Shown one piece after another: positions 8,996-20,575 of a DNA stretch of 64,000 nt (positions are counted from its first letter, which is position 1; every line of letters starts with the position of its first letter). This DNA comes from Pelomonas caseinilytica. Its GTDB lineage: Bacteria; Pseudomonadota; Gammaproteobacteria; Burkholderiales; Burkholderiaceae_C. The position numbers and the translations under genes were made by a program. The stretch lies in assembly GCF_021353235.1 (NCBI RefSeq), contig NZ_JAJTWT010000002.1:248001-312000 (forward strand), read 5' to 3'. The notes beneath the pieces are model-generated. The model was not told the origin of the DNA and did not search any database. It saw only the letters and a program-made list of their open reading frames with translations.

Positions 8996-9315
8996 AGGTG
9001 GTCTTCCTGCCCGGGGCGGAGCAGGACCTGCGCGACATCCGCCGCGATGTTCTGAAGAAGTTCGGCGCACCGGCGTGGACAGACACGCTGAACCGACTGC
9101 GTGCCACGGTCGACACGCCGCAAGCCTCCCCGCTGTCGGGCGCCGTTCCCGACGAGGTCCGCGAACTCGGCAGCGAGCGCTACCGCCAGCTCATCTCGGG
9201 CAGGAACCGGGTCATCTACGAGCCCACTGCCGAGGTCGTCTACATCCACATCGTCTGCGATGTCCGGCGCGACCTGCGCGGGCTGCTGGCGCGGCGCCTG
9301 CTGCAAGTGCGCTGA
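8992..9315 (+). CDS. Type II toxin, ParE/RelE superfamily
   Basis: This 107-residue protein starts at a GTG overlapping the antitoxin stop. The ParE/RelE pattern is present: an N-terminal strand and helix with FLPGAEQDLRDIRRDVLKKFG, then the beta sheet segments RELGSERYRQLISGRNRVIYEP and VVYIHIVCDVRRDLRGLL. ParE members poison gyrase and RelE members cleave mRNA on the ribosome; the sequence alone does not decide between them, though the RYRQLISGRNRVIY segment is more like the ParE side. The length is normal and the frame intact, so the toxin looks functional. The 130 bases between it and the next gene hold no recognisable feature. Confidence 0.87.
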   Translation: MKVVFLPGAEQDLRDIRRDVLKKFGAPAWTDTLNRLRATVDTPQASPLSGAVPDEVRELGSERYRQLISGRNRVIYEPTAEVVYIHIVCDVRRDLRGLLARRLLQVR

Positions 9316-9445: not shown

Positions 9446-10816
9446 ATGAAAATCACCTTCCTCGGCGCCGCCGACACCGTCACCGGCTCGCGCCACCTGC
9501 TCACCCTGGGCGACCAGCGCCTGCTGCTGGACGCCGGCCTGTTCCAGGGCTTCAAGACCCTGCGCGAGCGCAACTGGATGCCGCTGGGCGCGCCGGCCAG
9601 CGAGCTCGACGCCGTGCTGCTGTCCCACGCCCACCTCGACCACTGCGGCTACCTGCCCGCACTGCGCCGCCAGGGCTTCAAGGGCCCCATCTACGCCACC
9701 ACCGCCACGCGCGACCTCTGCGACGTGCTGCTGCGCGACAGCGCCCACCTGCAGGAGGAAGACGCCAAGCGCGCCAACCGCGAGGGCTCCAGCCGCCACG
9801 AGAAGGCACTGCCGCTGTACGGCGTACGCGAGGCCGAGGCGACGATGGCGCAATTCGCCCCCCTGCCGCGGGAAGGCCGCCTCACGCTCGGCGACACCCA
9901 GGTGCGCTTCACGCCGGCAGGCCACCTGCTCGGCGCCACCTCCATCCACGTCAGCCACGGCGGGCGCTCGCTGCTGTTCTCGGGCGACATCGGCCGCGTG
10001 GGCGACCTGCTGATGCCGCCGCCGCAGGTCCCGCCGGCCGCCGACATCGTGATGATCGAGTCCACCTACGGCAACCGCCTGCACCCGGCCGAGGACGTGC
10101 AGGCCCGCCTGGCCCAGGTGCTGCGCACGACGCTCAAGCGCGGCGGCTCGGTGCTGCTGCCGAGCTTCGCCGTCGGCCGCGCCCAGGCCCTGCTGCTGGT
10201 GCTGCAGCGGCTGCGCAATGCCGGCGAGCTGCCGCTGGACGTGCCGATCTGGCTGGACAGCCCCATGGCCGAACAGGCCACCGAACTGACCGTCAAGCAC
10301 GCCCGGCTGCTGCGCATTTCGGCGAGCGAAGCGCGCAGCCTGACCGACCGCGTGCGCTACGTCACCAAGCAGGCCCAGAGCCTGAAGCTGGCCGCCAGCC
10401 TGGCGGCGCCGCGCGCCCGGCCGTCCATCGTCATCTCCGCCAGCGGCATGGCCACCGGCGGGCGCGTGCTGAACTACATCGAGACGCTGGCGCCCCAGGC
10501 CCGCCATCACATCGCCTTCCCGGGCTTCCAGGCCGGCGGCACGCGCGGCGCGCGCATGGTGGCCGGCGAGCGCGAGATCAAGCTGCGGGGCCGCTGGGTG
10601 CCGGTCAATGCCGAGGTCAGCCACCTCGACGGCTTCTCCGGCCACGCCGATGCCGACGGCCTGATGCAGTGGCTGCGCGCCCTGCCCCGGCCGCCGGAGC
10701 AGGTCTACGTGGTGCACGGCGAGCCTGCCGCCGCCGACGCCCTGCGCTGCCGCATCCAGGAGGAACTCGGCCTGCCCGTGCGCGTGCCCCAGCACGGCGA
10801 GACCGTCGAGGCCTGA
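9446..10816 (+). CDS. MBL-fold / beta-CASP metallo-hydrolase with RNA-specificity domain
   Basis: This 456-residue protein belongs to the family that includes CPSF-73-like and bacterial beta-CASP enzymes, usually exo- or endoribonucleases. The metallo-beta-lactamase start KITFLGAADTVTGS is followed by the zinc motif SHAHLDHCGYLP near residue 60, GHLLGATSIHV, SGDIGRVGD and ESTYGNRLH. The beta-CASP segment occupies roughly residues 210-380 and contains SFAVGRAQALLLVL and the closing SASGMATGGRVLNYI. The C-terminal RMMBL element includes HLDGFSGHADADGL and YVVHGEP. The chosen ATG follows GGAG-like sequence at 9438-9441. Its stop codon is followed by one base and then repeat copy A. RNA is the likely substrate, by family. 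Confidence 0.85.
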   Translation: MKITFLGAADTVTGSRHLLTLGDQRLLLDAGLFQGFKTLRERNWMPLGAPASELDAVLLSHAHLDHCGYLPALRRQGFKGPIYATTATRDLCDVLLRDSAHLQEEDAKRANREGSSRHEKALPLYGVREAEATMAQFAPLPREGRLTLGDTQVRFTPAGHLLGATSIHVSHGGRSLLFSGDIGRVGDLLMPPPQVPPAADIVMIESTYGNRLHPAEDVQARLAQVLRTTLKRGGSVLLPSFAVGRAQALLLVLQRLRNAGELPLDVPIWLDSPMAEQATELTVKHARLLRISASEARSLTDRVRYVTKQAQSLKLAASLAAPRARPSIVISASGMATGGRVLNYIETLAPQARHHIAFPGFQAGGTRGARMVAGEREIKLRGRWVPVNAEVSHLDGFSGHADADGLMQWLRALPRPPEQVYVVHGEPAAADALRCRIQEELGLPVRVPQHGETVEA

Positions 10817-10997
10817 GATGGAGCTGCCCCCGGCCCAACCCCGCGCGCTGAACGCGGCGCGTGTCTGGTCCGCCCCCCGAGGGGGCGGCGATGCTCGCGG
10901 CTTCGAGCCGCAAGCACATCGCCGGCGCGGGCCGGCTCGGGAGCGGCCCAGCGCTCGGCCCGCAAATACCCCGTTTCATCGGCTGCGGGTGGTGCGC
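10817..10997 (+). repeat. Structured dispersed repeat, copy A, with coupled mini-ORF
   Basis: This segment matches 19275-19453 (opposite strand) at more than 90% identity over 10817-10962, then at a 15-bp block (10983-10997) after the same 20-base spacing. It can form three hairpins: CCGCCCCC/GGGGGCGG (10870-10888), TGCT-GCGGC/GCCGC-AGCA (10892-10916) and GCGGGCCG/CGGCCCGC (10927-10963). It also encodes a 65-residue reading frame (10818-11015, starting MELPPAQPRALNAARVW). That frame begins one base after the upstream stop (TGAGATG) and ends one base before the downstream start (again TGAGATG). Whether the peptide is made is unknown. Confidence 0.8.
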
Positions 10998-11016
10998 AGC
11001 ACCATGGACAACTGAG

Positions 11017-12306
11017 ATGGACGGCGCCCAACCCTTCGGCGTCTCCAGCGAACTCATCGTCGGCCTGGCGGCGGCGCTGGGCAGCGGGCTGCTCATCGGC
11101 CTGGAGCGCGAGCGCCACAAGCGCCGCGGCCCCAACCACGAACCCGCCGGCCTGCGCACCTTCACGCTGGCGTCGATGTGCGGCGCCCTCGCCCAGGCCC
11201 TGGCCGTGCCGGGGCTGGTGCCCGTCGGCGCCCTGGCCATCACGGCGCTGGCCGCCATGGCCTACCTGCGCAGCCGCGGCCGCCCGGGCCTGACGACCGA
11301 GGCCGCCCTGCTCGTCACCTACCTGATCGGTGCGCTGTGCGTGACGGCGCCGCTGCTCGGATCGCCCGCCGCCGTCGTCATGACGGCGCTGCTGGCCGCC
11401 CGCACCCGGCTGCACCGCTTCGCCACCCAGGTGCTGCGCGAGGAGGAGCTGCACGACGCCCTGCTGCTCGGCGCCCTGGCCTTGGTGGTGATGCCGCTGA
11501 TGCCCCAGCAGCCCCTGCCCTGGCTGGCCGGCATGAAGGCGCATTCCCTGCTCGGCCTGATGCTGCTCATGCTGGTGCTGCAGGCCGTCGGCCACGTCGC
11601 CCTGCGCCTGGCCGGCCCGCAGGCGGGGCTGGCCGTGTCGGGGCTGCTGTCGGGCCTGGTCTCGAGCACGGCCACCATCGCGGCCATGGGCGCGCGGGCC
11701 CGCGCCCAGCCGGGCCTGGCCCTGGCCTGCGCGGCCGGCGCGGTGATGTCCACCTGCGCGACCTGGCTGCTGGCCCAGGTCATGCTCTTCGCCATGGCCC
11801 CGCAGGCGGCGCTGCTGGTGCTGCCGGTGTCGCTGCTCGGCGCGGCCCTGTGCGGCGGCCTGGGCTGGCTGCTGGCCCGGCGTTCGCGCCGCGACGCGGA
11901 GGCCACCCCGGCCGCGCCCGAACCCGAGGGCCCGCGCGGCCCGCTGCGGCTGCGCGAGGCCCTGGTGCTGTCGCTGATGCTCGGCGCCGTGGCCGTGGCG
12001 GTGAGCTGGGCGCGCGAGCACTTCGGCCGCTCGGGCCTGTACGGCGCCGTGGCGCTGACGGCCTTTGCCGACGTGCATGCGCCCATCGCCTCGCTCGCGG
12101 GCCTGCAGGCCGCCGGCAGCATCGGCCGCGGCCAGGTGCTGCTGGGCCTGCTGCTCGCCTTCGCCTGCAACAGTACCACGCGCGGCATCACGGCCGTGGC
12201 GGCCGGCGGCTGGCGCTTCGCCCGCTTCGTCATCCCGGCCCTGGCCCTGCCGCTGCTGCTGGGCGGCGGCCTGGCGGCGCTGCTGCTCTTCGGGGCCGGT
12301 TCGTGA
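11017..12306 (+). CDS. MgtC/SapB family membrane protein with DUF4010 domain
   Basis: This 429-residue integral membrane protein has the MgtC/SapB domain at residues 1-140 (GSGLLIGLERERHKR, PAGLRTFTLASMCGAL, AYLRSRGRPGLTTEAALLVTYLIGAL). A DUF4010 half follows with about eight more hydrophobic segments (GLLSGLVSSTATIAAMG is typical). The MgtC domain is linked to magnesium stress and to modulation of the F1Fo ATPase in pathogens, but the long MgtC-DUF4010 proteins have no settled function. The ATG lies one base after the stop of the mini-ORF in repeat copy A, suggesting coupling. Its own TGA overlaps the GTG start of mnmC by four bases, so the two genes form an operon. Confidence 0.85.
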   Translation: MDGAQPFGVSSELIVGLAAALGSGLLIGLERERHKRRGPNHEPAGLRTFTLASMCGALAQALAVPGLVPVGALAITALAAMAYLRSRGRPGLTTEAALLVTYLIGALCVTAPLLGSPAAVVMTALLAARTRLHRFATQVLREEELHDALLLGALALVVMPLMPQQPLPWLAGMKAHSLLGLMLLMLVLQAVGHVALRLAGPQAGLAVSGLLSGLVSSTATIAAMGARARAQPGLALACAAGAVMSTCATWLLAQVMLFAMAPQAALLVLPVSLLGAALCGGLGWLLARRSRRDAEATPAAPEPEGPRGPLRLREALVLSLMLGAVAVAVSWAREHFGRSGLYGAVALTAFADVHAPIASLAGLQAAGSIGRGQVLLGLLLAFACNSTTRGITAVAAGGWRFARFVIPALALPLLLGGGLAALLLFGAGS

Positions 12307-18550: not shown

Positions 18551-19222
18551 TCAGAACCTCAGCGTCTTCACGCCGTCGGCCGCGCCGAGCAGGCAGACCT
18601 GGGCGCGGTGGCGGGCGAACACGCCGACGGTGACGACGCCGGGCCATTGGTTGACCTCGGTCTCGAAGGCCAGCGGGTCGTCGATGGCCAGGCCACGCAC
18701 GTCGAGGATGTGGCCGCCGTTGTCGGTGACGACGCCCTCGCGCAGCCGCGCCTCGCCGCCCAGCCGGGCGAAGCGCCGCGCGAGCTGGGCCGCCGCCATC
18801 GGGATGATCTCCACCGGCAGCGGGAAGCGGCCCAGCGTCTTGACGAGCTTGGATTCGTCGGCGATGCAGACGAAGGTCTCGGCGAGGTCGGCGACGATCT
18901 TCTCGCGCGTCAGCGCAGCGCCGCCGCCCTTGATCATGAAGCCGCGCCCGTCGATCTCGTCGGCACCGTCGACATAGACGGCCAGGCCGGTGACCTCCGA
19001 GGCGTCGAGCACCTGGATGCCGTGGCTGCGCAGGCGCTGGGTCGAGCGCTCCGAGCTGGACACGGCGCCCGGGATGGCGATGGCCCCCGCCGCGATCCGC
19101 GCCGCCAGGGCGTCGATGAAGCAGTCCACCGTGGACCCCGTGCCGACGCCGAGGACCTGGCCGGCGGGGACGTGGTCCAGGGCCGCGCGGCCGACGAGTT
19201 GCTTGAGCTGGTCTTGGTTCAT
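18551..19222 (-). CDS. rpiA: Ribose-5-phosphate isomerase A
   Basis: This 223-residue enzyme interconverts ribose 5-phosphate and ribulose 5-phosphate in the pentose phosphate pathway and the supply of nucleotide precursors. Diagnostic segments are [15 protein letters not shown] (phosphate loop), the catalytic DGADEIDG, and [12 protein letters not shown]. Length and ends match the family. Its ATG overlaps the TGA of the mini-ORF carried by repeat copy B (ATGA at 19219-19222), so it could be translationally coupled to it. A small membrane-protein gene follows 8 bases downstream. Confidence 0.96.
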
Positions 19223-19274
19223 GAAGCGATGAGGAGAGAAGGGAGCGGGCGGCGCAGGCTTGACTTCAGTCGGA

Positions 19275-19453
19275 GCGCGCCACCCGCAGGAGTTTGAACC
19301 CGAGGGATTCGGGCCGAGCGCTGGGCCGCTCCCGAGCCGGCCCGCGCTGGCGACGCTTGAGGCTCAATGCCGCAAGCGTCGCCGCCCCCGCGGGGGGCGG
19401 ACCAGACACGCGCCGCGTTCAGCGCGCGGGGTTGGGCCGGGGGCAGTTCCATC
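19275..19453 (-). repeat. Structured dispersed repeat, copy B, with coupled mini-ORF
   Basis: This is the second copy of the element at 10817-10997, in inverted orientation 8.3 kb away. The conserved core is 19310-19453 and the conserved 15-bp block is 19275-19289. The middle hairpin is nearly perfect here (CGACGCTTG at 19351-19359 with CAAGCGTCG at 19373-19381). The copy starts one base after the aroG stop (TGAGATG). The mini-ORF (19452 down to 19219, 77 residues) ends in a TGA overlapping the rpiA ATG. Its first 33 residues differ from copy A at only two positions; the C-terminal part is in a different frame because of a 2-base indel. Confidence 0.8.
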
Positions 19454-20575
19454 TCACTCGCGGCGCTTCTGTACCGCGGCGGCGAGTTCGCGCAGCAAGG
19501 GTTCGGTCTGGGCCCAGCCCAGGCAGGCGTCGGTGATGGACACACCCGGCTTGAGGTCGGCCTTGGTCTGGCCCGGCTGCAGGTCCTGCCGGCCTGGCTG
19601 CAGATGGCTCTCGATCATCACGCCGGTGATGCGGCGGTCGCCGCCGGCGATCTGGGCGGCCACGTCGTGGCCGACGTCGACCTGGCGCTCGTACTTCTTG
19701 CTGGAGTTGGCGTGCGAGAAGTCGATCATGACCTGCTCGCGCAGGCCCGAGGTCCGCAGGGCGTCGCAGGCGGCGTTCACGGAAGCCGCGTCGTAGTTGG
19801 GCGCCTTGCCGCCGCGCAGGATGACGTGGCAGTCCTCGTTGCCGCGCGTCTCGAAGATGGCGGCCGTGCCCATCTTGGTCATGCCCATGAAGGCGTGGGG
19901 CGAGCTGGCGGCGAGCACGGCGTCGCTGGCAACCTTGATGCCGCCGTCGGTGCCGTTCTTGAAGCCGACCGGGCAGGAGAGGCCCGAGGCCAGCTGGCGG
20001 TGGCTCTGGCTCTCGGTCGTGCGCGCGCCGATGGCGCCCCAGGCGATGAGGTCGGAGATGTACTGCGGCGACAGCAGGTCCAGGAACTCGGTGCCGGCGG
20101 GCAGGCCCAGGGCGTTCACGTCCAGCAGCAGCTGGCGGGCCAGGCGCAGGCCCTCGTTCATGTGGAAGCTGCCGTCCAGCCGCGGGTCGTTGATGTAGCC
20201 CTTCCAGCCCACGGTCGTGCGCGGCTTCTCGAAGTAGACGCGCATGACGAGGAGCAGGTCGCGGCTGAGTTCGTCGCGGGCGGCCTTGAGCAGCCGCGCG
20301 TAGTCCATGGCCTGGTCGTGGTCGTGGATGGAGCAGGGGCCGACGACGACGAGCAGCCGGTCGTCGCGGCCGTGCAGGATGGCACCGATCTCCTGGCGGG
20401 CCTGCTCCACCAGCTCCAGCGTGGCGTCGGGGATGGGCAGTTCCTCCAGCAGCAGGGCCGGGCTGATGAGGGCACGGACCGCGCCGATGCGGGTGTCGTC
20501 GGTGCGGGTGGTGTCGCGGGTGGCGTCGCGCGAGCCGCTCTCGCGGTCGTGGGCGGGATCGTCCAGGGGTTTCAT
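19454..20575 (-). CDS. aroG: 3-deoxy-7-phosphoheptulonate (DAHP) synthase, class I
   Basis: This 373-residue enzyme condenses phosphoenolpyruvate and erythrose 4-phosphate in the first step of aromatic amino acid synthesis. Conserved segments of the AroFGH class are VVGPCSIHDHDQAM, YFEKPRTTVGWKGYIND, WGAIGARTTESQSHR, GFKNGTDGGIKVA and MIDFSHANSSKKYERQ. The isozyme (Phe, Tyr or Trp sensitive) cannot be read safely from sequence; overall it is closest to AroG. The start was set at MKPLDDP because upstream residues are unlike the family. It follows the EamA exporter gene by 28 bases on the same strand, so the two may be co-transcribed. Repeat copy B begins directly after its stop. Confidence 0.94.
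   Translation of the reverse strand: MKPLDDPAHDRESGSRDATRDTTRTDDTRIGAVRALISPALLLEELPIPDATLELVEQARQEIGAILHGRDDRLLVVVGPCSIHDHDQAMDYARLLKAARDELSRDLLLVMRVYFEKPRTTVGWKGYINDPRLDGSFHMNEGLRLARQLLLDVNALGLPAGTEFLDLLSPQYISDLIAWGAIGARTTESQSHRQLASGLSCPVGFKNGTDGGIKVASDAVLAASSPHAFMGMTKMGTAAIFETRGNEDCHVILRGGKAPNYDAASVNAACDALRTSGLREQVMIDFSHANSSKKYERQVDVGHDVAAQIAGGDRRITGVMIESHLQPGRQDLQPGQTKADLKPGVSITDACLGWAQTEPLLRELAAAVQKRRE

What the first reader, a model, noticed from the sequence alone, without database searches (positions are those of the whole stretch)
10817..11019. Repeat element that bridges two genes and carries a mini-ORF coupled to both (copy A)
Between the MBL/beta-CASP gene and the MgtC gene lies one copy of a roughly 180-bp repeat. 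A 65-residue reading frame in it starts one base after the upstream stop (TGAGATG at 10814-10820) and ends one base before the downstream start (TGAGATG at 11013-11019). Hence three cistrons could be read by termination-reinitiation. The same element occurs at the aroG-rpiA junction. Such exact fit at both ends, twice, is unlikely for a random insertion and suggests a mobile spacer that preserves translation through the operon, or a leader-type peptide. Structure and frame are seen; purpose is inferred.
Basis: partly seen in the sequence, partly recalled or inferred. Interest (0 to 1): 0.72.

Follow-up and report, generated by a model that had tools for sequence, protein, structure and literature searches.

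The report
Post-stop repeat with bridging mini-genes
A folded repeat found in a hundred or so copies per genome in Roseateles and its relatives sits just behind stop codons, and where another gene follows in the same direction it often carries a tiny reading frame that seems to lead the ribosome across to that gene; this would let a spreading piece of DNA enter operons without breaking them.

Summary
The ~200-bp element at 10814-11019 belongs to a dispersed family without Rfam match: a ~140-nt multi-hairpin core with strong covariation and variable ends. There are 115 CM matches in this genome and 84-147 in three sister species. Of 225 copy rows examined, 185 begin 0-13 nt after the stop codon of a gene in the same orientation, 88 of 99 in this genome; random non-coding placement would give about 10%.

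Where a gene follows in the same direction, a frame with a start codon at the upstream stop runs through the core and ends at the next start in 52 of 107 copies; shuffled tails give 26±3.6, at most 36 in 2000 shuffles. Copies before converging genes show such open frames less (13/52 vs 73/90). Several frames are used, so the peptide is not what is kept. Five relatives lack copy A and have a direct TGATG overlap there. Best reading: a mobile hairpin element, tolerated in operons when a bridging mini-ORF keeps ribosomes moving by termination-reinitiation. Translation is not shown; the mobiliser is unknown.

The parts
9446..10816 (+). upstream gene of copy A: MBL-fold / beta-CASP / RMMBL protein, stop TGA 10814-10816 (start as called by my script; an earlier GTG at 9101 is in the same open frame)
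   Evidence: codon-usage gene call, ORF list, Pfam
10818..11015 (+). bridging mini-ORF A, 65 codons plus stop; start 1 nt after the upstream stop, stop 1 nt before the MgtC start
10826..10966 (+). structured core of copy A (141-nt model R1: hairpin 1, short C4/G4 hairpin 2, long hairpin 3, irregular terminal hairpin 4)
   Evidence: cmsearch 130.5 bits, E 2.6e-21; covariation
10967..11015 (+). variable tail of copy A, ends ATGGACAACTGA; a tail type shared by part of the family
   Evidence: alignments and listings
11017..12306 (+). downstream gene of copy A: MgtC / DUF4010 protein
19454..20575 (-). upstream gene of copy B: DAHP synthase (aroG), stop TGA at 19456-19454
19306..19444 (-). structured core of copy B
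   Evidence: cmsearch 120.8 bits, E 1.2e-19
19219..19452 (-). bridging mini-ORF B, 77 codons plus stop; starts 1 nt after the aroG stop, ends in the ATGA overlap with rpiA
18551..19222 (-). downstream gene of copy B: ribose 5-phosphate isomerase A

Best explanation
It is a copy of a non-autonomous, dispersed multi-hairpin element of Roseateles and related genera that lands, or survives, directly behind the stop codon of a gene, in that gene's orientation. Between two genes of one operon such an insert would block ribosomes, part the stop/start overlap and favour polarity. Copies that persist there tend to carry a short frame that begins at the upstream stop and ends at the next start. Ribosomes ending the first gene would reinitiate on this mini-ORF, melt the hairpins, end at the next start and reinitiate again. 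The peptide does not matter; passage of the ribosome does. Shown: the family, its fold, its position, empty sites in relatives, and selection-like enrichment of in-frame bridges. Inferred: mobility by an unknown enzyme, actual translation, and reinitiation.
For: Family: 115 CM hits in this genome, 147, 146 and 84 in three sisters, with 150 candidates scored per genome. Fold: 21 of 46 pairs with two-sided changes, 0 of 500 shuffles as good, slid structures fail. Position: 185 of 225 copy rows 0-13 nt behind a same-strand stop; null about 10%. Empty sites: five relatives have TGATG where copy A sits; at a CobT junction 6 of 20 genomes hold the element at the same spot with several different heads. 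Bridging: frames with ATG/GTG at the stop end at the next start in 52 of 97, other frames in 21 of 224 (p 6e-17); 28/67 vs 16/161 without the shared tail type. Tail shuffles give 26±3.6 against 52 of 107. Gaps peak at -1 (22) and +4 (19) of 89. Open frames from a start at the stop: 73/90 before a near gene in the same direction, 13/52 before a converging gene. Copies A and B bridge in different frames. Mechanism precedent: attC hairpins relieved by short ORFs through termination-reinitiation (PMC8876359, passages).
Against: No expression data. 55 of 107 copies before a gene in the same direction do not couple within -7..+5, and coupling is nearly confined to starts under 60 nt from the core (51/90; 1/18 at 60-110 nt; 2/20 farther). 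An SD-like word before the next start is as frequent with coupling as without (9/51 vs 6/39), so dependence on coupling is not shown. 25 of 52 copies before converging genes also have a start codon at the stop. Part of the excess could reflect shared descent of heads and tails, although it survives removal of the common tail type. No transposase or clear target-site duplication was found (27, 35). Gene calls are by my own codon-usage script.
Confidence: 0.62

Rival explanations
1. Primarily an RNA element of the upstream gene: hairpins close behind the stop set the mRNA 3' end, stabilise it or slow termination (REP-like), and this keeps copies behind stops. Bridging frames are a by-product or secondary repair.
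For: The tie to the stop holds also before converging genes (52 of 181 distinct anchored copies; same distances as the others), where no coupling is possible. E. coli REPs fewer than 16 nt from a stop lower translation (reported in PMC12306157, passages). The fold is conserved.
Against: Covariation shows no preference for G-U over A-C on the sense strand (79, of which 52 at one pair, vs 98), so the transcript need not be the selected form. It does not explain the in-frame bridging excess or its concentration before genes in the same direction.
Confidence: 0.25
2. A functional leader peptide or small protein encoded by the repeat.
For: Open 45-93-codon frames with start and stop in operon-like spacing.
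Against: Coupled frames use all three offsets (34, 13, 5) and give at least two unrelated peptides; no Pfam match to the 65-residue frame; copies A and B differ in frame over the last third.
Confidence: 0.04
3. Chance or artefact: in GC-rich DNA frames stay open and the gene caller places starts near stops.
For: Core frames 0 and 1 are open in 93 and 79 of 108 copies anyway; gene pairs in the window also use close spacings (10 of 44 adjacent same-direction pairs at -4, -1 or 1).
Against: Same copies, other frames: 21 of 224 couple. Tail shuffles reach at most 36 against 52. The contrast in open frames between same-direction and converging neighbours does not depend on the caller's choice of start.
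Confidence: 0.05

Closest known systems
attC sites of integron cassettes with short ORFs
   Same: Hairpin behind a stop codon that hinders ribosomes; a short ORF in it is described as relieving this by termination-reinitiation (PMC8876359, passages). Sense orientation right behind the cassette gene is recalled.
   Different: No RYYYAAC or GTTRRRY core sites at the ends in 182 rows; the copies looked at lie behind ordinary chromosomal genes; several hairpins over ~141 nt with a different fold.
REP / BIME elements, including those within 15 nt of stops in E. coli
   Same: Dispersed palindromic repeats, often over 100 per genome (PMC2817692, abstract start in listing), mostly downstream of coding regions (PMC3733652, abstract and passages), some within 15 nt of stops (PMC12306157, passages).
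   Different: 141-nt core of several hairpins instead of 20-40 bp. GTAG/CTAC or CGTC/GACG tags next to the core in only 5 and 21 of 182 rows. No copy within 1.5 kb of the three Y1 transposase genes of this genome. In E. coli only 446 of 4,072 predicted REPs are within 15 nt of a stop against 185 of 225 rows here.
YPAL/RU-2 and ERIC/RU-1 small mobile sequences of enterobacteria
   Same: 100-200 bp, folded, filled and empty sites, some carry ORFs (PMC2229807 and PMC2759123, passages). YPAL placement close behind stop codons is recalled from De Gregorio 2006; a look-up under the DOI I recalled found nothing held.
   Different: In the passages seen the ORFs are fused in frame to genes, not separate cistrons bridging two genes. 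No clear terminal inverted repeats in four copies tested here.
Rickettsia palindromic elements (RPE)
   Same: Palindromic repeat that leaves translation possible at its insertion site (PMC2229807, passages).
   Different: RPE frames are fused inside genes; this family lies between cistrons and uses stop/start junctions.

Membership tests
attC site | RYYYAAC near the 5' end and GTTRRRY near the 3' end | tested here: not met
   0 of 182 rows with either
attC site | part of a cassette array with an integron integrase | not tested
   no integrase search was made
REP (GTAG/CGTC-tagged) | 20-40 bp palindrome with unpaired GTAG or CGTC tag | tested here: not met
   core 141 nt; tags in 5 and 21 of 182 rows
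REP (GTAG/CGTC-tagged) | association with a RAYT (Y1) transposase gene | tested here: not met
   three Y1 genes in own genome, no element match in their 1.5-kb flanks; one copy lies about 3 kb from one of them; other genomes not tested
REP (GTAG/CGTC-tagged) | frequent position within 15 nt behind a stop codon | tested here: met
   185 of 225 copy rows at 0-13 nt
MITE-like small mobile sequence (ERIC, YPAL, NEMIS) | filled and empty sites in relatives | tested here: met
   five relatives empty; 6 of 20 filled
MITE-like small mobile sequence (ERIC, YPAL, NEMIS) | terminal inverted repeats | tested here: not met
   four copies tested; best local matches between the ends score 5, 5, 5 and, in copy A, 9 (14 of 19 letters)
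MITE-like small mobile sequence (ERIC, YPAL, NEMIS) | target-site duplication | tested here: inconclusive
   copy A has CTGAGATGGA at both ends, but TGARRTG-type ends are also family consensus; not separable by eye at the three junctions seen
known structured RNA family | match to an Rfam model | tested here: not met
   none at E<=1 around copy A; none at gathering in six other loci

The most novel reading that the evidence does not exclude
The element inserts where translation ends, not at a DNA word: its insertion is directed to sites of translation termination (for instance through its transcript or an RNA-guided step). It then spreads with its own bridging cistron, a mobile element adapted to operon grammar.
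Probability: 0.1. Interest if true: 0.9.

Novelty: new variant of a known kind. Interest (0 to 1): 0.62.

Why it matters
How repeats colonise compact bacterial operons without silencing downstream genes is open. This family gives about a hundred natural insertions per genome, with filled and empty orthologous sites, in which the role of a bridging ORF in termination-reinitiation and polarity can be measured directly. It also adds a folded repeat family for which no Rfam match was found. Short ORFs annotated at such junctions may be spacer frames and not genes.

Tried and rejected
Plasmid and phage collections: no match to the element in plasmids; four unannotated phage records match coding parts of the flanking stretch. 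Y1 transposase partner: three genes, no element in their flanks. Split copies enclosing a gene: none printed. Terminal inverted repeats, attC cores and REP tags: not met. TGA as a DNA target word: anchored own copies use TGA/TAG/TAA 81/6/1 against background 219/21/15, p 0.19, so not supported, though not excluded. A conserved M-D-N mini-peptide in the tail was considered, but many coupled copies lack that tail. Order-wide presence: of 150 genomes only this one matched, but that draw held just three other genomes of the family and used stricter filters; one search found DNA matches in 29 of 59 relatives.

Rows dropped or corrected: L032/L058 (one locus) were first counted as anchored through a chance CCCC and were removed; still include them (182 rows instead of 181, 108 instead of 107). 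One search left out L050, the orthologue loci (L051-L053, L154-L199), matches under 30 bits and duplicates within a group. The four groups overlap a little (185 anchored rows are 181 distinct). Seven of the 74 '' rows and one of the 43 G012 rows lay under 200 bp from a locus end. The own-genome sample is 99 distinct copies; the CM search listed 115 matches from 150 scored candidates. G012 copies were taken from the top of its list.

Full report
What is there. Between the beta-CASP gene (stop TGA 10814-10816) and the MgtC-family gene (ATG 11017) lies a 65-codon frame, 10818-11015, that starts one base after the first stop and ends one base before the next start (Pfam). A second copy lies in reverse at the aroG-rpiA junction. 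There the frame starts one base after the aroG stop, runs 77 codons and ends inside an ATGA overlap with rpiA. Copy B lacks two bases in hairpin 3, so the last part is read in another frame and through a different tail, yet it still meets the next start.

The family. A DNA search of the own genome gave 44 matches, some of them pieces of one copy. Of 59 relatives 29 had matches, some weak, among them all 19 other same-genus genomes. In some of these (Ideonella L060, Piscinibacter L064, Methylibium L118 and others) the match covers hairpin 4 alone, in a shorter related element. A covariance model of the ~140-nt core finds 115 matches in this genome and 147, 146 and 84 in three sisters, with 150 candidates scored per genome. 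In a draw of 150 genomes of the order only this one matched, under stricter filters and with three other family members in the draw. Rfam has no match.

The fold. In 52 sequences 96.3% of cells pair, 21 of 46 pairs change on both sides, no shuffle reaches this, and sliding the partners destroys it. The support is uneven: hairpins 1 and 3 carry 18 of the 21 pairs, while in hairpin 4 eight of 13 pairs never vary and one changes on both sides. Hairpin 3 swaps whole blocks (for example TTGCGG..CCGCAA, TTGCCGG..CCGGCAA and TTGGCGG..CCGCCAA). On a larger alignment G-U and A-C cells are 79 and 98, with 52 of the G-U at one pair and about half of the A-C at three pairs of hairpin 1. The covariation therefore does not tell whether the selected form is the transcript or single-stranded DNA.

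Position. A random non-coding position would be within 14 nt of such a stop in about 10%. Of the 11 others here, seven lie antisense to both flanking genes, several with the CCCC end close to a start codon (for example CGAGGGGCTCC-ATG). The other four are one whose upstream stop lies inside the element, two with no near stop, and one inside a called gene. Stop codons used (81 TGA, 6 TAG, 1 TAA) do not differ significantly from background (219, 21, 15; p 0.19). The closely similar CCCCCGG subfamily, likely the youngest, is anchored in 35 of 36 copies.

Filled and empty sites. At copy A five relatives (L155, L156, L157, L159, L166) have the two genes overlapping as TGATG without an insert; a sixth (L158) is cut off. 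At an Lrp-type junction the element is present here and in two of 16 relatives, directly behind the stop; at a CobT junction several relatives are empty with a short leader of about 14-26 nt. A census of 20 genomes at the CobT junction finds it in six, with heads differing between lineages (four of the 14 without it also lack CobT as the direct neighbour, by reading of the junctions). The upstream-gene tree needs about five changes (bootstrap 4-5), but its supported branches alone do not exclude one origin, and the presence pattern is no more clustered than shuffled labels. So the element is patchy and sits at the same place in several lineages; repeated insertion, loss or replacement are not separated.

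Bridging frames. Of 107 distinct anchored copies followed by a gene in the same direction within 110 nt, 52 have a frame with ATG or GTG at the upstream stop that ends within -7..+5 of the next start. Frames with such a start couple in 52 of 97, the remaining frames in 21 of 224 (p 6e-17). The nearest gaps peak at -1 (22 copies) and +4 (19) of 89. Exchanging tails among copies gives 26.0±3.6, maximum 36 in 2000. Without the common CAACTGA-type tails it is 28 observed against 12.9±2.7, maximum 22. A start codon at the stop with an open frame through the core is found in 73 of 90 copies before a gene under 60 nt away in the same direction, and in 13 of 52 before a converging gene (p 8e-11). Coupled frames fall at offsets 0, 2 and 1 to the CCCC start in 34, 13 and 5 cases and give at least two unrelated peptide types. 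This argues for passage of ribosomes, not a peptide. Against a strict need for coupling: about half of the copies before a same-direction gene do not couple, and downstream starts have a Shine-Dalgarno-like word as often with coupling (9/51) as without (6/39).

How it most likely works. Precedent comes from integrons: attC hairpins behind a stop hinder ribosomes, and a short ORF in attC is described as relieving this by termination-reinitiation (PMC8876359, passages only). REPs fewer than 16 nt from stops reduce translation in E. coli (PMC12306157, passages). The family here combines both situations in ordinary operons: a folded insert just behind the stop and, where a cistron follows, often a bridging frame. 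Membership fails for attC (0 of 182 rows with either core) and for tagged REPs (tags in 5 and 21 of 182; no copy in the flanks of the three Y1 genes). The MITE-like label fits in size, empty sites and ORFs, but no clear inverted ends were seen in four copies and a target duplication could not be separated from the family's own ends.

Is it in print? Ten literature searches in the open-licence library showed no description of this family or of repeat-borne bridging cistrons in their listings; five papers were looked at by passages. Subscription papers are not held, so this is weak evidence of absence.

Limits. No expression data; gene calls are mine; copies are not fully independent; the enzyme that moves the element is unknown.

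Noticed in passing
L200, L213, L218, L223, L250 (own genome), L271, L067: Minority copies lie antisense to the flanking genes with the CCCC end about 4-19 nt from the called start codon, in some as CGAGGGGC-NNN-ATG, an SD-like word at good spacing; the element may serve as a ribosome binding site in this orientation.
   Followed up: partly
L235, L238, L239, L244, L251-L256, L258 and others: A longer variant carries an extra multi-hairpin block (GTCTTGCAGACCGCGCAGCC...GGCAGGCAC...) inserted after hairpin 1; those printed mostly start directly behind the stop as well.
   Followed up: partly
G000:C12:426752-427308 (L014, L050): Neighbouring element copies in which one CTGARATG-type end seems shared by two units.
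   Followed up: no
L002, L006, L046 flanks: Another short repeat, in part with an inverted partner (CACAGAGGCACAGAGGCAC...), follows directly behind three element copies.
   Followed up: no
L171-L183: Most empty Lrp junctions share a leader word like CTCGGTTATCGTGC before the downstream gene that is missing in the three element-bearing genomes; two of these share a different downstream N-terminus.
   Followed up: no
A1 columns 9/46; A2 columns 131/144: A recurrent pyrimidine mismatch in hairpin 1 (seen by eye) and a U-G/C-G/A-G position in hairpin 4 recall mispairs in hairpins recognised by IS200/REP-type nucleases (recalled).
   Followed up: no
L166/L160 (G009): The MgtC-family gene is split in this relative: two matches in different frames with one stop.
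   Followed up: no
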